Shown: positions 2,417 to 60,581 of the stretch, piece after piece | Layout: each line of letters starts with the position of its first letter | Numbering within the stretch: position 1 is the stretch's first letter | Origin: Clostridiales bacterium | GTDB lineage: Bacteria > Bacillota > Clostridia > Christensenellales > JAISNN01 | Direction: 5' to 3' | DNA length: 64,000 nucleotides | NCBI GenBank assembly: GCA_031275485.1 | Contig: JAISOS010000073.1 | Coordinates: forward strand, 1-64,000 | Made by a program: the position numbers and the translations under genes | Notes under the pieces: model-generated | What the model was told of the DNA's origin: nothing | Seen by the model: the letters and a program-made list of their open reading frames with translations, nothing else | Database searches by the model: none

Positions 2417-2470
2417 CCGAAAGAGTTTTTAAAAGACGGATAAAATGCCGTCTTTTAAAAACTCTTTCGG
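2417..2470 (+). terminator. 23-bp perfect inverted repeat, probable terminator or processing hairpin
   Basis: CCGAAAGAGTTTTTAAAAGACGG - 8 nt loop - CCGTCTTTTAAAAACTCTTTCGG, just after the lipoprotein stop; no strong T-tract follows. Confidence 0.6.
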
Positions 2471-2761
2471 CGGTTTCCGGTTTGTTTTATCGGGAGTATC
2501 TTTTTTGTAAATTTCTTGGATGCCTCCCCCTTTCAAAAAGTGCGGGACTAATCGGGGACTTTGTAGCGGGGGTTCGGCAAAAAAGCGCAACCGCAGGTTT
2601 CGATTATATTTCGCAAAAAAAAACTTGTCGCAACGCTCGACTCGAACAGAGTTGCAAAAAATGGAAGTTTTTGAAAAAAGGCGCGGCGGGGGAATTTTTT
2701 TCAAAAAAGGTTTTCTTGCATAGCTTTTCCTTTTTTCAAAAAATGCGGAGAGTTTCGAAAA

Positions 2762-5698: not shown

Positions 5699-5716
5699 GA
5701 TTTTTTTAATTTACCC

Positions 5717-5752
5717 GGCGGAAACCCTTTGTTCGCAAAAAGGGTTTCCGCC
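5717..5752 (+). repeat. Family A palindrome copy
   Basis: GGCGGAAACCCTTTGTTCGCAAAAAGGGTTTCCGCC. Confidence 0.85.
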
Positions 5753-6057
5753 GCGCCCTTATCCCAAAATACTCAACGTAATATTTAAAACGTATCTACG
5801 AAAGCGTTCGTTATAAAGACCGTCCGAATATTTCCTTTTAAATGCGCCGAAAAAGTCCCTTTTTAGACCCGCACGGCGTGCGCGGCAAAAGAAATGCCGC
5901 TTTAAACGGTGGAACAAAGTCCTGTTTGAATAGGAAATTTATAGGGCGTATCCGTAAAAAGGATTCGGCGCGTCGTTCGCGGGACTGCGCTGCTTATGCA
6001 ATGTCGATTTATAACGGATATAATATATTAAATATTATGAAGGTTTTTTAGAGAGGG

Positions 6058-6100
6058 GCATCGGGGGACTTTTGTTCGCAAAAGGTTCTCCGTGCATAAA
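6058..6100 (+). repeat. Family A palindrome copy (degenerate)
   Basis: GGGGGACTTTTGTTCGCAAAAGGTTCTCCGTGCATAAA, 31 nt before the 6131 start. Confidence 0.7.
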
Positions 6101-6130
6101 TCTCCTCATTAAAAAAATCTAAGGTAAGAA

Positions 6131-7387
6131 ATGAAAGACAAGCTGATCCCGTTAATTATCGGCAAGGGACCGGAGAAAAAGTGGACGTTGAACAAAGCGT
6201 CGCGGGTCGCGCTTTTCATCGTCAGTTTTTTCGTCGCGGGTTATGCGCTTTTTGTTTCCTTGTCGTCGGGCGGCAGGGTAGTCGGTTTGAGCGGTTTTTT
6301 ATCGGCGGTTACGGCGAACGGCGGCTGGTTTCTCATAGCGGTTTTGCTGTTTTTGACGGTAATTTTGGCGGAGACGGCGCGGTTTGTCATTTTGATTTAT
6401 GCGACGAAAAAGACATTCCGCCCTGTCTTAGCGTTCAGAACCTTTATGATAGGCAGGTTTTATAGTGCGGTAACGCCTTTCGCGAACGGCGGACAGGGCT
6501 TGCAGGCGCGGATTTTAACGGATGCAAAGCTGGGTAAGGCGGTCTCTTTCAGCGTACCGTTCTCACAGGTTTTTTTAAAGACGCTGACGTGGAACATATT
6601 ACTTTTGATTTTTTTTATTTTCAACTCGCAGGAAATACAGGGCTTGAAGTGGTGGGCGCTTGCGGGTTTGGTTTTCAACGGCATATTTCCACTTTTATTC
6701 TTTATATTTTCTGTCAACGAAAAGGCGGCGAAGCGCATAATCGCCGCAGTTTTAAAGCTAGGTACGCGCGTAAAAATTGTAAAGAACTACGATGCTTTTT
6801 TGGGCGGCGCATGGAGCTTTTTAGAGGATCTGAGTATATCGGTAAAGAGTATCGTTCGCAATTTGCGACCGTTTCTCGCGTTGCTGCTACTGTACGGCGT
6901 CGAGTTTATGGCGGTTATGAGCATACCCTATTTTCTGTTCAAGGGAGCGGGCGCGGACGTAAGTTACAATTTTATGCTCATATCGTATATGTACATATAC
7001 CTTTCCACGACGTTCCTGCCCATACCGGGCGGCGCGGGCGCTTACGAGCTACTTTTTCTCACTATGTATTCGGCTCTCGCGGGCGACGGTATGGCGTATT
7101 GGCTGATGTTCACCATGCGTTTTTTTACGTATTTTTTCTATATAATAGGCGGATATATCGTGCAGTTGGTCGATTCGGCGCTCAAATACGCGCGGAAACG
7201 CCGAGAAATCCGTAGACTCATAGCGGAGCATACCGAGAAGGAAAACCGAAAAAACGAGGCGGCGCGAACGGCTGAAGGCTGTGAGGAGAGCGGCGGGAAG
7301 ACGGACGAAAAAACGATGAAAAAAGTGATAAAAAACAACGGTACGGGGATTGGGAAAGATACAAAAAACGGTAAAAAAACGACGTAG
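6131..7387 (+). CDS. flippase-like / lysylphosphatidylglycerol synthase TM-domain family protein (UPF0104-like)
   Basis: Multi-TM protein; FLPIPGGAGAYE motif characteristic of this family; low-complexity basic C-terminal tail. Confidence 0.75.
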   Translation: MKDKLIPLIIGKGPEKKWTLNKASRVALFIVSFFVAGYALFVSLSSGGRVVGLSGFLSAVTANGGWFLIAVLLFLTVILAETARFVILIYATKKTFRPVLAFRTFMIGRFYSAVTPFANGGQGLQARILTDAKLGKAVSFSVPFSQVFLKTLTWNILLLIFFIFNSQEIQGLKWWALAGLVFNGIFPLLFFIFSVNEKAAKRIIAAVLKLGTRVKIVKNYDAFLGGAWSFLEDLSISVKSIVRNLRPFLALLLLYGVEFMAVMSIPYFLFKGAGADVSYNFMLISYMYIYLSTTFLPIPGGAGAYELLFLTMYSALAGDGMAYWLMFTMRFFTYFFYIIGGYIVQLVDSALKYARKRREIRRLIAEHTEKENRKNEAARTAEGCEESGGKTDEKTMKKVIKNNGTGIGKDTKNGKKTT

Positions 7388-7862
7388 AAAATGACGAAAA
7401 CGATAGAAAAAACGATGAAAAATACGGTAAAAAAGCATAGAAAACGGCGGCGAAAGCGGCAAAAAACACTATAAGGACAACATAGAAAGCGGAAATGGAA
7501 ACGACGCGGCGAACGATACGGAAAATGTAAAAAAAATTGAGAAATGAAGTAAGAAGCGTTTCTTTTACCGGCGACGATCGGAAAAGGTCAAAAACCGCCA
7601 AAAAAAGCGAAAAAAGGAATGAACCCCCTATGAAAAAGAAGTAATATCCGATTTAAAATATAGCCGTACAAAAATACGTCAAAAAAGAAAGCGCGTCGGC
7701 GTGGCGAAACAATGAACACGGAAAGCGAAAGCCGGTCAAGCCTTTTTGAAAAGGCGAAGTCGTCAAGTCGGCGGCGGGGTATTTGCGGTCTCTTTTTTTC
7801 AAAAGAAGATTTAACCGCCGCGAATCCTTAACAGACGCTCTTCACAAAAAATCGGAGACTGT

Positions 7863-9232: not shown

Positions 9233-9267
9233 AAATATAGCCGTTATAAAATATAACGGCTATATTT
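9233..9267. terminator. bidirectional terminator-like hairpin between convergent genes
   Basis: Perfect 16-bp inverted repeat AAATATAGCCGTTATA-AAA-TATAACGGCTATATTT; overlaps the stop codon of the minus-strand gene. Confidence 0.7.
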
Positions 9268-10135: not shown

Positions 10136-10477
10136 CCTTTTCGTTTATTAGCCGAATATTTTCCCGCGCAACTCCGGCGCGGAATTTTTTTATAGACGCG
10201 GTTTTTCGCTCCGGAGTTCGCGCAATTTTATGTCCGTCATACTTTCAAACGCTACTTGATCGAAATTGAAAACGCAATCGTTATATTGAAGGATATTTCA
10301 GTTCGTATAGCGGTTATGAATCTGAATTGCGTTAAAGATAAATTTTGATTTTTTTGCCGCGGGAAGCAGGAGACGTAAGGGACCTTTTCGTATCCGAGTA
10401 ATACGGAAAGCCGTTCTTTTCGCCGCTTGCGGCAAAAAAGGCGGCGTTCGGCTTGCTCCGTTATATTTCATAACGAC

Positions 10478-10708
10478 TTATATTATCAGCCGGTACATAG
10501 TCTCGCCCGACGCGGGTGAAAGCGAGAGAATTTCGGCTGTTATTTTCTTTTCGCCGAAAGATATTTCCAATATATCGCCGATTTTGACTTCCTTAGAGGG
10601 CTTCGCGGGTTTGCCGCCCACGTAGACTCGCGAAGCGGCGCAAGCCCCGTTCGCGACGGTGCGGCGTTTTATCAGTCTCGAGACCTTTAAGAATTTATCG
10701 AGGCGCAT
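10478..10708 (-). CDS. rqcP: S4-domain RNA-binding protein (RqcP/YabO-like)
   Basis: [45 protein letters not shown], a typical S4 domain of about 76 aa. Confidence 0.85.
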
Positions 10709-11241
10709 ATTCTCACCTTTTTGTTTATAAATTTTTTTCGGACATCCTTCGAAACTTGACGGCGAATAACTTTCAGGCGGTTTTTGCGCGCCGCCGCGTC
10801 GTTTTTGACGACGAATACTCCCGCCGGACGCCGGAAAAAGCGACGCGGCGGCACGTAAAAAAAAACAATAAAAGATATCGTCGGCATGGTTTCGAAAGAG
10901 GTCTTTTTTTCCTGCGAAAAATTCGGTCGTTTAACGGTCTTGTTAAACTGTGAAAAACCGCCGCGCCGTCTTTTTAAAAAGGACGTTTTCAAATTAGACG
11001 CCGTTTAATTTTTAATAAGTATAAAATTTTTTCCCGCTTTGCCGTTCGCCGTTACACCGGACGAGCGTTTTTTCATACCGGCAAAATTCCCCCCCGCAGT
11101 ATGTTTTCGCCGCTCATTTGCCCGCGATACGGGCGGACGGCGGCTTTAAGGACGGCTTTTGAAGATTTTCAATTTCCATTGTAATTTTTACGCTAAAAAC
11201 AAAAAATTTTCAAATTTTTGCAAAAAATAGAGTAAAAAGTC

Positions 11242-19172: not shown

Positions 19173-19195
19173 AAAAGGGAGTAGCTTTTAAAATT

Positions 19196-19235
19196 GCGCG
19201 GGGAAGTCTTTTATGAACAAAAGACTTCTCCGCGC
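19196..19235 (+). repeat. Family A palindrome copy after rpoC
   Basis: GCGCGGGGAAGTCTTTTATGAACAAAAGACTTCTCCGCGC. Confidence 0.85.
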
Positions 19236-19565
19236 CTCTTTACAAAAAATTTTAATAGTAGTTTTAAATTGTCGTGACGAATAAACCTATCGGGTACTAT
19301 TTTTCATCGCGAAAATTTAGAATTTCCGCTTCAATGCTTTTGACAGTGATTCCTCTTTTAAGCCGTATAAAGCGCACATAATCGCTGTTCCGAGAAACTT
19401 TAAAAAGGATTCCGAATTTTCGTTAAATCTGCCGGGCTTTATTTTTATTACGAAAATTTAGAATTTCCAATTCATAACGGCTATATAATTCTATATAAGA
19501 AAAATGTTGCGGCTGTGTTTTTTCTTATGAGACAAGCAGAAGCGTTGAAGCTTTTGAAAGAGGGC

Positions 19566-19607
19566 GCGGGGGAAGTCTTTTGTTCACAAAAAGTTTTTCC
19601 CGTATAA
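19566..19607 (+). repeat. Family A palindrome copy before purM
   Basis: GCGGGGGAAGTCTTTTGTTCACAAAAAGTTTTTCCCGTATAA. Confidence 0.8.
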
Positions 19608-19637
19608 TTTAAAAAAATAAAACGGGGGATTTTAAAA

Positions 19638-27252: not shown

Positions 27253-27364
27253 CTACATTATAACGAATATGGCTCTTTTTTGCAAGTAAATAGCAAGGTA
27301 TTGCGGAAATTTTCACAAACTTTTTTGTTTTTCGTGGAGAGAGGTTTTCTTTTTTTAAAAATTA

Positions 27365-27406
27365 TGCGGGAGAAACCTTTTATGAATGAAAGATTTTCTC
27401 CCGCGT
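27365..27406 (-). repeat. Family A palindrome copy, reverse orientation
   Basis: TGCGGGAGAAACCTTTTATGAATGAAAGATTTTCTCCCGCG, then TACCTTTCCCGAAAACC. Confidence 0.8.
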
Positions 27407-27539
27407 ACCTTTCCCGAAAACCTCGGCGGTTTACGTTTGTTGGACTTTTAAATTATAATCCGATGAATCGGAATCGAGTTAAAGACAAACGTTGAATTTT
27501 TTACCTCAAGCCGCTAAAAAGTTCTCTTTCGTGGTTCGC

Positions 27540-27625
27540 GCAATACGAAAAACGGTTCTTTTTTACCGCAAGCGGTAAAAAAGACGACGTTTAGCTTGCG
27601 CAATTTCGATTTATAGCGGTTATAA
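27540..27625. repeat. Family B hairpin-containing intergenic repeat
   Basis: AATACGAAAAACGGTTCTTTTTTACCGCAAGCGGTAAAAAAGACGACGTTTAGCTTGCGCAATTTCGATTTATAGCGGTTAT; related segments at about 10400-10480, 31080-31165 (inverted), 40015-40085, 51265-51330 (inverted). Confidence 0.65.
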
Positions 27626-27648
27626 ATTCTCAAAATTATACGATTTTT

Positions 27649-29571
27649 TTATTTTACGCGCAATGCCCTAAGGGCGTTAAACACGGCGAGGACGGCAACG
27701 CCCACGTCGGCAAAAACGGCGAGCCACATATCCGCTAAACCGAGAACGGAGAACAGCAGGACGGCAAATTTGACGGAGATAGCTAGAACCGTGTTTTGAG
27801 CGGCGATGGACAGCGTTTTTTTGGAAACACGTATGGCTACGGCTATTTTCGACGGCTCGTCCGTCATAAGCACGACGTCTGCGGCTTCTACGGCGGCGTC
27901 CGAGCCCAAACAGCCCATAGCCACGCCTATATCCGCGCGCGCGAGCACGGGCGCGTCGTTTATGCCGTCGCCCGCGAAAATCAGCTTGCCTTTCGCCGAC
28001 TTGCGTTTGAATAATTCTTCGAGCTTTTCCGCCTTGTCCTGAGGCAACAGACCTGCCGCGAAGTCGCCGATACCGAGCGCGGCGGCGATTTTTTTCGCTT
28101 CGGCGGGCGAGTCGCCCGTCAGCATGGCTATGTGCTTTACGCCTGCGGCTTTTAGATCGGACACGGCCTTTTTTGCGTCGTCCTTGATTTCGTCGGATAC
28201 GGCGAGCATTCCTTCATATTTCCCGTCGACGGCTATATAAACCGCCGTTCCGGAAAATTCGGCGGCAATTTCGTTGTCGAAAAACTCCGCTTTACCGGAA
28301 TCGGCGATTTTGTCGTCCGTGATTTCCGCGCCGATTTTCGCCATAAAGCGGGCGTTTCCCGCGTAAATTTTTTTTGAGCCGACGATAGCGGATACGCCGT
28401 AGCCGGCTATTTCCTCCGCGTCCTTTATAATATTCTCGGATATTTTGCCGCCGCGCGCTATGAACGCGTCTTTTACGGCGAGCGCGACGGGGTGCGCGGA
28501 GTAGTTTTCGGCATGCGCCGCGAGAGATAACAGCTCGTATTCTGAGAGACGCGGCGAGGAAACCGCGCCGATTTTGAACGCGCCCTTTGTGAGCGTACCC
28601 GTCTTGTCGAATACGACGATTTCGGCGCGTGCGAGAGCCTCCAAATAATTGCCGCCTTTTATGAGTATGCCTTTTTTTGACGCGCCGCCGAGTCCTCCGA
28701 AAAAGCTCATCGGAATGGAAATGACAAGCGCGCACGGACATGACACAACGAGGAAAGTCAGAGCGCGGTAGAGCCAGGCGGGGAAGCTGTTCCAGCCCGT
28801 AAGCGCGGGCGGCGCGACCGCCAAAACCGCCGCGACGGCGACGACGGCGGGAGTATAGTACCGCGCGAATTTCGTGATGAAGTTTTCCGAATTAGATTTT
28901 TTCGAGCTTGCGTTTTCCACGAGGTCGAGGATTTTGCTTACCGTCGATTCGCCGAACGCCCTCGTTACGCGCGCGGTTATTACGCCGTTTAAATTTACGC
29001 AGCCGCTCAGAATTTCCGAGCCCTCGAACACGTCGCGGGGAGCGGATTCGCCTGTCAGCGCGGCGGCGTCCACCGAGGACGAGCCTTCCGTAATCACGGC
29101 GTCGAGCGGGATTTTTTCGCCGGGCGCGACGACAATCAGATCGCCCGCCTTTACCTCGCAGGGGTCAACCCTGACGGTTCCGCCGCCGTCATTTCTCACA
29201 AGGTTGGCATAGTCGGGGCGTATGTCCATAAGCGCGGCGATGGATTTTCTGGATTTCGCGACGGCGAAGCTCTGACACGCCTCGCCCGCTTGATAGAAAA
29301 GCATGACCGCGACAGCCTCCGGATATTCGCTGATACAAAACGCGCCCGCCGCCGCTATCGTCATCAAAAAGTTTTCGTCGAAAATTCTGCCCTTTAATAT
29401 GTTCCTGAAAGCGCGCAGAAAAACCTCGCCGCCCGTGATTAAAAGCGCGGCAAGATATGGAATGAACGTTAGATAACTTGGGATAAAATTTAATAATCCC
29501 GCGTAATCCCCCGCTAGAACGGTTGCGAAAACCGCCGCGCCGACGGCGAGGCGCACGATTGTTTTTTTCAT
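27649..29571 (-). CDS. heavy-metal translocating P1B-type ATPase (Zn/Cd/Pb-like)
   Basis: SCPCALVISIP, DKTGTLTKG, GDGINDAPVLARADIGVAMG; start at 29571 (MKKTIVRLAVG) preferred because the upstream ORF extension overlaps a palindromic repeat. Confidence 0.93.
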   Translation of the reverse strand: MKKTIVRLAVGAAVFATVLAGDYAGLLNFIPSYLTFIPYLAALLITGGEVFLRAFRNILKGRIFDENFLMTIAAAGAFCISEYPEAVAVMLFYQAGEACQSFAVAKSRKSIAALMDIRPDYANLVRNDGGGTVRVDPCEVKAGDLIVVAPGEKIPLDAVITEGSSSVDAAALTGESAPRDVFEGSEILSGCVNLNGVITARVTRAFGESTVSKILDLVENASSKKSNSENFITKFARYYTPAVVAVAAVLAVAPPALTGWNSFPAWLYRALTFLVVSCPCALVISIPMSFFGGLGGASKKGILIKGGNYLEALARAEIVVFDKTGTLTKGAFKIGAVSSPRLSEYELLSLAAHAENYSAHPVALAVKDAFIARGGKISENIIKDAEEIAGYGVSAIVGSKKIYAGNARFMAKIGAEITDDKIADSGKAEFFDNEIAAEFSGTAVYIAVDGKYEGMLAVSDEIKDDAKKAVSDLKAAGVKHIAMLTGDSPAEAKKIAAALGIGDFAAGLLPQDKAEKLEELFKRKSAKGKLIFAGDGINDAPVLARADIGVAMGCLGSDAAVEAADVVLMTDEPSKIAVAIRVSKKTLSIAAQNTVLAISVKFAVLLFSVLGLADMWLAVFADVGVAVLAVFNALRALRVK

Positions 29572-29606
29572 ATGTCGGCTCCTTGTTTTTTTATTTTTTA
29601 AGATTC

Positions 29607-29647
29607 CGCAGGGAAACCTTTTATGAACAAAAAGGCTTTCCCCGCGC
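29607..29647 (-). repeat. Family A palindrome copy, reverse orientation, before the P-type ATPase gene
   Basis: CGCAGGGAAACCTTTTATGAACAAAAAGGCTTTCCCCGCGC, then TCCTTCCCC. Confidence 0.85.
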
Positions 29648-29942
29648 TCCTTCCCCAAAAAATCGACGTCTACAATGTTATGCAAAGCGGCGCAGTCTTA
29701 CGAATGGAAAGAAAAAGCCTCTTTTAGAGAGAAAGCAAAACGAAACGTTATCCTCCGTTGAAAAATCTCTCCGTAACACTTTTTTTCTTTCGTAAAAACT
29801 TAGCGCAAATCCCCTTTTTCTTTTGCAAATGCAAAAGAACTTAGTTGCGGCATTTCCCTAATGCCGAGCAAAAAATATAACCGCAATAGTTGGTTTGAAT
29901 GTAAACATTAAAACACACATTAAGTTTTTTGAGAAAGAGACC

Positions 29943-29979
29943 CGAGCGGGAAGCCTTTGTTAAAAGGTTTCCCTCGCAC
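29943..29979 (+). repeat. Family A palindrome copy
   Basis: CGAGCGGGAAGCCTTTGTTAAAAGGTTTCCCTCGCA. Confidence 0.8.
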
Positions 29980-30006
29980 AAATCCTTTTAAAAAAATTAA
30001 AAAATT

Positions 30007-30937: not shown

Positions 30938-31210
30938 GCGTTTTTATGTAAAAAGATAAAAAATAAAATTATTTTTTATGAACGCCGTAAAAAAATAAGA
31001 ACCGGATTGAAAGGTAATCAACCGATTCTTATTTTAGCGTTTAAAATTGATTCCAATATTATAGTCGTTACGAATTCGCGCGGGCTAAACGCCGCCTTTT
31101 TAGCCGTTTACGGCAAAAAATCAACGGTTATATTCGCGCAATTCCAATTCCATAACGGCTATAAAACGTTAAAATTTTTTGGAATAAAACGATAAAGTTT
31201 TTTGAAAAAA

Positions 31211-31256
31211 GACGCGGGGGAACCCTCCTATTGTTTACAAAAGATTTCCCCCGCGT
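31211..31256 (+). repeat. Family A palindrome copy
   Basis: GACGCGGGGGAACCCTCCTATTGTTTACAAAAGATTTCCCCCGCGT. Confidence 0.8.
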
Positions 31257-31283
31257 GCGTCTTTTAAAAAAGTCCGAAAACTT

Positions 31284-38124: not shown

Positions 38125-39114
38125 ACCCGTTACGCTCCTTATAAAAAAATCTTTTGTGTTTATAGTTTATTATAAAATCAAAAAAATGTCAATATATTTT
38201 GAGAATTAAGATGCGAAAAAACGGTTCCGTTAAATAAAATCAAAAATATTAACCGAGTTTAGCGTGTCGAATCGGTGAAAAATGCGCTTTTTGGGCGACA
38301 TTTTATCGGACGGCGGCATTTTTGTTTTGCTTATCCGAAGCTTATCGCGCGCCGGGATAAACGGCGTTACTCCCGCTCCAGCCGTTTCAACCGTTCCGAA
38401 AAAACGACGGCTCCGGCGCCGCAATCCGGTTGCGCGCCATGCGACGCTTCAAATCCCGCGCCCGCGCTTTTGAAAAAAGCGGATAAAGCCGCAGAAAGGT
38501 TTCGCGGGAATTTTAGCGCGCAAGCGGTTGACAAATCGCGCGATAGGGTATATAATTACAAACAAACAAAAAAGCGCCCGTACCTTTCCTCAAAAACGGC
38601 CGATGAAAACGCGCGGACATATTTTTCGGTATTAAAGTCTAAGAGCATGTACGAATAGGGTTTAAACGCGTCCGCCGCTCGCGGATCTTTAAAAACGCGG
38701 GCGGGACAAAATCTCCCTTAGTTTGCATTAGACCTCTTCCGGAACTGCGCTTACGGTATCTTTTGCCGTTTTACAGCGTGCCGCCGCATCGTAATTTTCA
38801 TAATATACTGCATATACTGCGGGAGTGCGCGCCGTCAAACGCGCCGCGGCGGTTCGCGAAAACCCTCTAAAAGCTATTCGCCGCCAAATTTCAAAAGATG
38901 TATATTGTCAAATGCCCGCTTACGGGATCGGGCGTTTCTATGAAAGAATTCCTTAGGTAAAGAATATTTTTGAGCGTTTATTCATATCGTTTAAAAAAGA
39001 AGCGATTCGGTATCGCCTAATCGGAAAAAGAGCGGATAATTTTGCGTTGCGAATATCGCGGCGGACGCTCCGAAAAAAATGGGGCGGGTGCCGCCGTTAC
39101 GGATATGATATATT

Positions 39115-39810: not shown

Positions 39811-39835
39811 GGGTGGGAGTTTGTTTGAAAAGTTA

Positions 39836-39879
39836 CGCGTAGGAAGCCTTTTATCGGGGGGGAAAGCTTTCCGCGCGTG
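39836..39879 (+). repeat. Family A palindrome copy (degenerate)
   Basis: GCGTAGGAAGCCTTTTATCGGGGGGGAAAGCTTTCCGCGCGTG. Confidence 0.6.
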
Positions 39880-40243
39880 CCCCTTTTCAAATGACCTTAT
39901 CGTTTTTTTTACGCTTATTTTTATAATTAATATAATCGTTACGGATCGGAAGCCGGTAAAAATAACCGTTGAGTTTTTTGTCGCGGGACGTTCTTAAAGA
40001 TTCTTTATTCGTATTTGCGTAATAGGAAACGCCGTTTTTTTCGCGGTAAGAGTCAAAAAGTCCGCTTTTAGCCTGCGCGATTGTCAAGTTAAATAAATAC
40101 GTTAAGTAAAGTTATGAGTAAATGCAATTGAGTAAATAACGTCGACGCGACGCATAGCGCGTAAAGCTATGCGGACACGCAACGAAATAAAGGAAAACGC
40201 GCGAAGGAAACGCGGCGAGTTTTCGCAACGGGAGAATTGACGG

Positions 40244-41680: not shown

Positions 41681-42039
41681 GTAAAGAACGGAGATTTTTA
41701 CAAGAACCCGATTACGTATTCCGAGGTTTCTTAAAAATATACGGAGGAAATCCGGATCGGTATAATTTACGGGGGCGTTATCGTTTTTTAAAAAACATGC
41801 GTAGGATTTGAACAAAAGGCTTTTCCCCGCGCCCCTTTCCAATAAACTTTGACGTGCGTTTTACGGTTTCGTTTAAACAAAGCTATACGGTTAAGTTTTT
41901 TTTTGCGTAATACAAATAAATGTTGCTAAACGCTGCGGCTGAATTTCCATGCGGAATATAATGGAAATAAAATATGGAAAAACCTGAGGAATTAGAGAAA
42001 TAGAGTATGGAGAAAGCGCGGGAATTAAGGAAGTAAAAT

Positions 42040-45453: not shown

Positions 45454-46109
45454 GCAGGAAGAATTAGGATAAGGACGGTTGTTGTAAATTTAATATTAAT
45501 GCCGACGGAAAGCGGCGGCGGGATGCAAATGAAGACGGATGATTTGCGGCAAATATTTCGCTCTTTTTGAATTTTGGCGGCTTCGTGAATAAAATAACGG
45601 TGAACGTTCCCTCGCGCAGAGTTGTTTATTTCTGTAGTATTTTTTTTCGTTTGGTTCGTTTGTTCGGTAATAAAACGATCGAAGACGTTTTCCGCGCGGC
45701 GGGGCGGAAAGGCTTGCTTATTTCGGCTGTTTTACATACTTAGTAAGCCTCTCGAAGCTTCCGATAGGGATGTAAGGATATGCGTAGGCGCCGCGTTAAG
45801 TTTTGACGGCGTAGGCATATAATCGAGGCGGTATATAATGCCGGGCATAATAAAGCGTTCGCCGGAGTGTTCGGTTTTTCTTTGTGCCGGACTGTCATAA
45901 ATGCCTATACCCGGCTGTATGCCTTTGAAACGCTGTTTCGCGTGTGGGAGTTAGGCCACGTGTAACAAGCTTTGCGTCCGTAAGCGCGGCTTGCCGCTCT
46001 GGGCAACGCTTTTTCCTGCGTTCATCGCTACGGCGGAAAAAGCGTCCGGCGGACGTGCGATTTTGAAGTAATCGCTATATAACCGTTAGTTAGCATCGAA
46101 AGTTTTTTT

Positions 46110-50943: not shown

Positions 50944-50987
50944 AATAAGGGGCTTTACGCGAAGAGAGTTTTTGAAAAAAATTATAT

Positions 50988-51025
50988 GCGGAAAATCTTA
51001 TCATAAAAGAAAAGATTTTCCGCGC
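50988..51025 (-). repeat. Family A palindrome copy, reverse orientation
   Basis: GCGGAAAATCTTATCATAAAAGAAAAGATTTTCCGCGCGC. Confidence 0.75.
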
Positions 51026-51651
51026 GCTCCTTATCGAAAAACCTTAACGGAGGGGTAACGGTTCCGTAAAAAGAAAACGCCTCGGATAGTTTTTTTGGGA
51101 AAGACAAAACGTCGCCGTAGCCGTATTTTTCATAATCCGATTCGCGCTCTTTATCAAAAGACTTCGTTATACCTTTCTTAAAACTTGCGGATTAGCGCAA
51201 GATATGGTATAATAAACGACAACGGATCGCGACGCTATACGGTCGTTATTGCGGTAAAGATTGAGGTCGCCTTTTTCGCGGCGAACGACGAAAAAACCGT
51301 ATTTTCGTATTGCCCGGATACGTCCCCCCCTTTTCGTGTCTCTCGCGGCAAGAAATTCAACGCTTATTTTCCGCGCAATTCCTATGCTGCCGGCCGTATG
51401 GCGAATAAACCTTTAAACTGCACGCCGCGCAGCTTAAACGATCGCGGTCACGCGGCTGTAAAACGCTTTGCAGCTTACGGTTTTTTCACTGTGACGGCGC
51501 TAAAAGGGCGGGTATCTCCGGCAAATTTGAAGCGGGCTTCAAATTTCTTTTAAATTACGCGGCGCGTATTAAAAGTTTATTCGGTATAACCTCAAGCGCG
51601 GGTTTTAGGCTATGTCGGTCGTGTTATATTATTAAAGTCTTTTGAAAATGG

Positions 51652-51692
51652 GCGCGGGGAAAGCATTTTGTTTGCAAAAGGCTCCTCCCGCA
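51652..51692 (+). repeat. Family A palindrome copy before ecfA2
   Basis: GCGCGGGGAAAGCATTTTGTTTGCAAAAGGCTCCTCCCGCATAA. Confidence 0.8.
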
Positions 51693-51722
51693 TAAGCCTC
51701 AACAAGAAAGGAAAAACGTCTA

Positions 51723-53431: not shown

Positions 53432-53594
53432 AAAAGGGTATGAAAAAACGCGTAAAAAATATGTCGTAAAACGCGGTATAGAAGCGCTAAAAATCATATG
53501 AAAAAAAATACGAAAAAGGCACAGAAAACGCGCAAAAAAATACATAAAAAACGTATAAAAATACAATAAAAATAACGAAGCTTTTTTGGAAAGA

Positions 53595-60416: not shown

Positions 60417-60581
60417 CCAAAGGCTTGCGTTTTATACGTTTTAGAAGAGCCGCGAATTAAAAAACGCGCGAAAAATCGAATAAAAAATACGTAAAAAACA
60501 TATAAAAAACGTGAAAAAATACATGTAAAACATGCGAAAAACGTATAAAAAATAATATTGTATTAAAGTCTTTCGGAAAGA

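What the first reader, a model, noticed from the sequence alone, without database searches (positions are those of the whole stretch)
27330..27640. Composite two-hairpin element: Family B module joined to Family A
Read on the minus strand (toward nifJ) the block runs GCAAGCTAAACGTCGTCTTTTTTACCGCTTGCGGTAAAAAAGAACCGTTTTTCGTATT, about 100 nt of AT-rich spacer, then a Family A palindrome. The same order appears at 31075-31256 (GCGCGGGCTAAACGCCGCCTTTTTAGCCGTTTACGGCAAAAAATCAACGGTTAT ... Family A). Related B segments occur at about 10400-10480 and 40015-40085, an inverted one at 51265-51330, and a possible one at about 45960-46085. This hints at a unit of about 300 nt, such as a non-autonomous mobile element or a structured leader RNA.
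Basis: seen in the sequence. Interest (0 to 1): 0.6.

Follow-up and report, generated by a model that had tools for sequence, protein, structure and literature searches.

The report
Palindromic mobile repeats clustered between genes
The block is a decayed copy of a 170-bp palindromic jumping element, one of at least about 80 in this uncultured gut-type Clostridia genome, sitting beside a second, independent hairpin repeat; the pairing is a real statistical pattern, but of a kind already known from other bacteria.

Summary
The "B block" is part of a 170-bp, full-length imperfect palindrome with ends TATAGYCGTTAYGAA, present in at least 82 copies in the part of the genome examined. Family A is a separate palindrome of about 78 bp. 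The pairing is not chance: of 30 A copies within 100 bp of a B, 29 turn the same (left) end to B, and 25 lie within 28 bp. It is nevertheless not one 300-nt unit. Most B copies have no A beside them, A joins either end of B, A is common in relatives that have almost no B, and one B copy sits at a TA inside an A element. B arms show no compensatory change, and the A-B block lies upstream of the conserved nifJ promoter, so a leader RNA is rejected. Both elements are missing at orthologous intergenic sites in relatives. Best reading: B is a non-autonomous TA-ended element (MITE), probably once moved by an IS630/mariner-type transposase, that often landed on the AT-rich shoulder of A. It is a new family of a known kind.

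The parts
27463..27624 (-). Family B element, nearly full length (model positions 1-159 of 169), two arms
   Evidence: nhmmer E 1.6e-38; alignment of 42 full-length copies
27350..27428 (-). Family A palindrome beside B, left end facing B, gap 24 bp
   Evidence: nhmmer E 1.5e-18; gap
27257..27285 (-). nifJ promoter TTGCAA-17-TATAAT, conserved in five sister genomes and lying between the A-B block and nifJ
   Evidence: orthologous upstream regions
31060..31163 (+). Family B element with internal deletion (104 bp)
31190..31270 (+). Family A palindrome beside that B, left end facing B, gap 26 bp
10306..10478 (-). Full-length Family B with no A nearby, next to the stop codon of an S4-domain gene; absent beside the G004 orthologue
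   Evidence: E 6e-40
39931..40083 (-). Family B element, absent from the orthologous intergenic region of five sister genomes
39821..39902 (-). Family A palindrome beside that B, left end facing B, gap 28 bp; also absent in relatives
51247..51385 (+). Family B element (model 20-155), between two A copies
50970..51049 (-). Family A copy left of that B
51630..51707 (+). Family A copy right of that B
9236..9264 (.). 29-bp minimal B remnant, the two terminal repeats joined (TATAGCCGTTATAAAATATAACGGCTATA)
5950..6022 (-). Decayed B half between two inverted A copies (5699-5778 and 6036-6111); the intergenic region is only about 40 bp in G003 and G001

Best explanation
Family B is a miniature, non-coding, full-length palindromic transposable element (MITE) of about 170 bp. 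Its ends are TATAGYCGTTAYGAA and it inserts at TA. It was probably moved in trans by an IS630/Tc1-mariner-type transposase whose autonomous source is no longer recognisable in this assembly. Family A is a second, independent palindromic repeat of about 78 bp, older or more widespread in the genus. B preferentially landed at TA sites on the AT-rich left shoulder of A (...TATAAAAACGTTAAAGTTTTTTGG...), and at least once inside A. The 'composite' is therefore adjacent or nested insertion of two repeat families in the same intergenic regions, now decaying neutrally, and not one mobile unit or an RNA leader. Shown: repeat nature, ends, palindrome, lineage specificity, adjacency bias, one related empty site, absence of covariation. 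Inferred: the transposase type, insertion (rather than co-mobilisation) as the cause of the adjacency, and the order of events outside the one nested case.
For: 82 non-redundant B copies; 117 terminal motifs vs 5 control; consensus folds end to end. Internal-deletion derivatives from 29 to 140 bp and 36-54-bp mini forms in G004. Related empty site: B copy G000:C55:10602-10768 interrupts an A element at TA, and removing B while leaving one TA restores A. No duplication longer than TA. A and B absent at the orthologous 40-kb and nifJ regions, and A-B-A absent at the 5.7-kb region, where G003 and G001 have about 40 bp. A is abundant in G004 (at least 151, scoring cap reached) and present in G005 (44), while B gives 9 and 2 hits there. 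Adjacency: 25 of 29 left-facing gaps under 100 bp are 28 bp or less, P 4e-9 against uniform. Neutral decay: Watson-Crick pairs 1726 observed vs 1734 expected if the arms vary independently.
Against: No autonomous B with a transposase was found. The one IS630 transposase in the assembly (C30:14187-14594) has ends that share only TAYAGC with B. The TA duplication rests on one clear related empty site, whose right half is A-rich. A pairs facing left-end-in (20, against 3 right-end-in, two of which overlap) could also be read as true A-X-A units. B orientation beside A is mildly biased (21:8, P 0.02).
Confidence: 0.78

Rival explanations
1. A'-X-A is the mobile unit: inverted Family A copies are long terminal repeats that carry variable interiors (B, module C, others), and the unit inserts as a 350-430-bp block between genes.
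For: Neighbouring A copies face left-end-in 20 times vs 3 right-end-in, two of those overlapping double calls. A right ends lie a median 28 bp from a gene and left ends 340 bp. The whole A'-X-A interval at 5.7 kb is absent in G003 and G001. A second recurrent module C lies between some A copies and the interior.
Against: Interiors of A'-X-A intervals without B share almost no sequence. Most A copies and most B copies stand alone. B is bounded by its own TATA ends, and removing B alone heals an A element. The sample of loci was drawn by B matches, which biases the pair count.
Confidence: 0.15
2. B or A-B is a structured regulatory RNA leader (for example of nifJ) or another conserved RNA.
For: The consensus folds into a very stable hairpin, and many copies lie upstream of genes.
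Against: RNAalifold finds no consensus pair over 30 copies. No covariation in B. No Rfam match in the window. The nifJ promoter, conserved in five relatives, lies downstream of the block, and the relatives lack the block. Copies also lie just after stop codons and in both orientations.
Confidence: 0.04
3. Chance similarity of AT/GC-skewed intergenic DNA.
For: Copies are only about 70-85% alike.
Against: E-values down to 1e-40; 117 vs 5 control motifs; conserved 170-bp boundaries.
Confidence: 0.01

Closest known systems
RUP (repeat unit of pneumococcus, 107 bp), thought to be moved by IS630-Spn1 (PMC2229807, PMC3049150)
   Same: Small non-coding palindromic repeat, TA at the ends, about 100 copies, Firmicute host, scattered between genes; [quoted passage not shown]
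   Different: B is 170 bp with unrelated sequence, its copies are much more diverged (about 20% from consensus), and no matching autonomous IS was found
Correia / NEMIS elements of Neisseria (107 and 155 bp; PMC2229807)
   Same: Inverted terminal repeats, TA termini, one long stem-loop, full-length and internally deleted forms
   Different: Sequence and host differ; no IHF site or RNase III processing tested; B is palindromic over nearly its whole length
ERIC / IRU (127 bp, enterobacteria; PMC2229807)
   Same: Imperfect palindrome with TA termini in intergenic regions
   Different: Different size, sequence and host
REPINs (inverted REP doublets with a RAYT transposase; PMC3116915)
   Same: Family A is a short, very abundant extragenic palindrome with compensatory changes, often found as inverted neighbours
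   Different: A copies lie 170-400 bp apart when paired, and no Y1/RAYT transposase was found in this genome

Membership tests
Bacterial MITE (TA-ended small mobile repeat) | Under 200 bp, non-coding, many dispersed copies | tested here: met
   About 170 bp, 82 non-redundant copies; no conserved reading frame (window copies 10306, 27463, 39931 and 51247 read by eye)
Bacterial MITE (TA-ended small mobile repeat) | Terminal inverted repeats with 5'-TA at the ends | tested here: met
   TATAGYCGTTAYGAA at both ends; 117 hits vs 5 control
Bacterial MITE (TA-ended small mobile repeat) | Filled versus empty sites show insertion with target duplication | tested here: met
   One related empty site with TA; orthologous regions in relatives lack it but are too diverged for base-exact junctions
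IS630/Tc1-mariner-derived element | Ends match an autonomous IS630-type element | tested here: not met
   The single IS630 copy in the assembly shares only TAYAGC at its ends; assembly about 91% complete
IS630/Tc1-mariner-derived element | TA target duplication | tested here: met
   One clear case; no longer duplication across 42 copies
REPIN / RAYT system (considered for Family A) | RAYT (Y1) transposase encoded in the genome | tested here: not met
   No PF01797 match in the own genome; only one sub-threshold match in the genus
REPIN / RAYT system (considered for Family A) | Inverted doublets with compensatory changes in the stem | tested here: inconclusive
   Inverted neighbours and stem covariation seen, but spacing is 170-400 bp
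Structured leader RNA | Conserved, covarying structure in the transcribed leader of orthologous genes | tested here: not met

The most novel reading that the evidence does not exclude
Family A hairpins act as interchangeable caps of modular intergenic mobile elements (A'-module-A, module = B, C or others) that spread as blocks and set the borders of most long intergenic regions in this lineage, by a transposition mechanism other than RAYT.
Probability: 0.12. Interest if true: 0.6.

Novelty: new member of a known kind. Interest (0 to 1): 0.33.

Why it matters
It adds an undescribed, lineage-specific palindromic MITE family to a little-studied uncultured Clostridia group and documents preferential insertion of one miniature element beside another. 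Annotation pipelines should treat these blocks as mobile repeats, not as conserved RNAs or regulatory leaders. The strict A orientation (one end towards genes, one towards B) remains only partly explained and can be tested with close strains.

Tried and rejected
A target duplication longer than TA was sought in 42 copies: none. A TIR-bounded autonomous element: the 4.3-kb pair on C9 encloses ordinary arginine-biosynthesis-type genes. Nested insertion of B into a module C-A junction was considered as a general rule: only one clear junction (L126), and other-side flanks of A-linked B copies are unrelated to C. Protein-coding origin of B was considered because some copies read open over short stretches: the frames differ between copies. 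Rfam found nothing. B was absent from viral contigs (exact terminal pattern), phage and plasmid records.

Full report
OBSERVATION. The minus-strand block at 27330-27640 is as described. A search of the window's own genome (2.03 Mb, 92 contigs) with it gives about 45 further significant places. The element is an imperfect palindrome over its whole length. Its two arms can be told apart (GCAAGCTAAACGCCGCC versus AGATAAACGTTGAATT), so copies have a direction. Profile searches recover 82 non-redundant copies in the stretches fetched. In the window they confirm 10306-10478, 27463-27624, 31060-31163, 39931-40083 and 51247-51385, and reject 45960-46085. The terminal motif alone gives 117 hits against 5 for the backwards control.

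THE COMPOSITE. Family A is a palindrome of about 78 bp, with 26 copies in the window at E below 1e-3. Within 100 bp of a B copy, 29 of 30 A copies turn the same (left, TTAAAGTTTTTTGG) end to B, and 25 of the 29 left-facing gaps are 28 bp or less, P 4e-9 against a uniform spread. Part of the orientation bias follows from a rule that holds without B: the right end of A is the one nearer a gene in 20 of 26 window copies, median 28 versus 340 bp; against that background the orientation bias alone has P 0.004. The tight gap is the stronger signal. The relation is nevertheless loose. Fifty-two of 82 B copies have no A within 150 bp, A attaches to either B arm (21:8), most A copies have no B, and gap lengths vary.

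WHICH MOVED. A is present in sister genomes: G004 at least 151 copies (only 150 candidates were scored, so both this and the own-genome count of 152 are lower bounds), G005 44, G002 16. B is essentially confined to the own genome, with 9 weaker matches in G004 and a terminal-motif excess only there (35 vs 4), including 36-54-bp mini forms. These models were built from own-genome copies, so relatives may be undercounted. At the 40-kb and nifJ intergenic regions, five relatives have neither A nor B. At 5.7 kb, G003 and G001 have about 40 bp where the window has an A'-(decayed B)-A stretch of 433 bp. One B copy (C55:10602-10768, locus L008) interrupts an A element: CAAAAGGTTCCCCTCCGCA-TA[B]TA-ATTTAAAAAAAATTAAAAAG. 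Deleting B with one TA gives an A element matching intact copies at up to 90% over 39 bp, E 7e-8. This shows B moving into a pre-existing A with a TA duplication. Its weakness is that it is one case and its right half is A-rich.

MECHANISM. TA ends beginning TAYAGY, a TA duplication and deletion derivatives fit a MITE of the IS630/Tc1-mariner type (established knowledge of these families; PMC2229807 for bacterial MITEs). The assembly holds one IS630 transposase (PF13358, split frame), whose own ends match B only at TAYAGC. The source is therefore not identified, and membership in an IS630-derived family is not claimed. Copies differ from the consensus by about 20% per site; two-sided changes in paired positions occur 124 times against 96 expected, and about half of them pair. 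Watson-Crick pairing of the two arms is what independent change predicts (1726 vs 1734), and RNAalifold finds no consensus pair. B is decaying neutrally. A does show stem covariation (269 vs 232), so A may be maintained or corrected as a hairpin. I do not know by what.

NOT A LEADER. The nifJ promoter TTGCAA-17-TATAAT at 27285-27257 is conserved, with small variation, in all five relatives and lies between the block and nifJ, so A and B are not in the nifJ leader.

KNOWN KINDS. RUP, Correia/NEMIS and ERIC are the close analogues (PMC2229807). In pneumococcus, BOX, RUP and SPRITE cluster and have inserted into one another (PMC3049150), which is the precedent for the composite. REPINs (PMC3116915) resemble Family A, but no RAYT/Y1 gene was found. 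The host is an uncultured Clostridia; the nearest named records by rpoC-type protein are Candidatus Stercoripulliclostridium (70%) and a Christensenella-named metagenome bin (68%). No description of these repeats was found in the library searched.

VERDICT. A real, mobile, previously undescribed repeat family of a familiar kind, with a genuine but secondary association with Family A.

Noticed in passing
window 10740-10907 and 38720-38910: Another dispersed repeat family of about 170-190 bp, with many copies in the own genome at 73-86% identity; the 10.7-kb copy contains a 33-nt inverted repeat.
   Followed up: partly
window Family A copies, e.g. 5699-5778 and 6036-6111; 19182-19257 and 19543-19619; 50970-51049 and 51630-51707: Family A copies come as inverted neighbours with left ends inward and right ends a few to 30 bp from a gene start or stop; right-end-in pairs are nearly absent.
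   Followed up: partly
L072, L126, L002, window 2594-2662 and 41847-41924: Module C (about 70 bp, ...CCGCAACGTTTGGTTTGAACGGAATTATAAAAACG) precedes some A copies and may be a diverged relative of a B arm.
   Followed up: partly
G000:C15:32327-32692 (L223): Family A copies in a regular array about 137 bp apart.
   Followed up: no
window 2417-2470: 54-nt hairpin with 23-bp arms, unrelated to A or B, just after the gene ending at 2355; perhaps a strong terminator.
   Followed up: no
G000:C30:14187-14594 (L150/L151): Single IS630-family transposase in two frames (121 and 175 aa), possibly frameshifted, with a Family A copy beside its 3' end.
   Followed up: partly
window 7285-7480, 53492-53572, 60450-60551: Loose arrays of AAAAACG/AAAAATACG-type short repeats.
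   Followed up: no
G004:C23 about 29500-30000 (L162): In the sister genome the 40-kb intergenic region carries its own repeat (ATCAAGATACGATAACGC...), so relatives have different intergenic repeat families.
   Followed up: no
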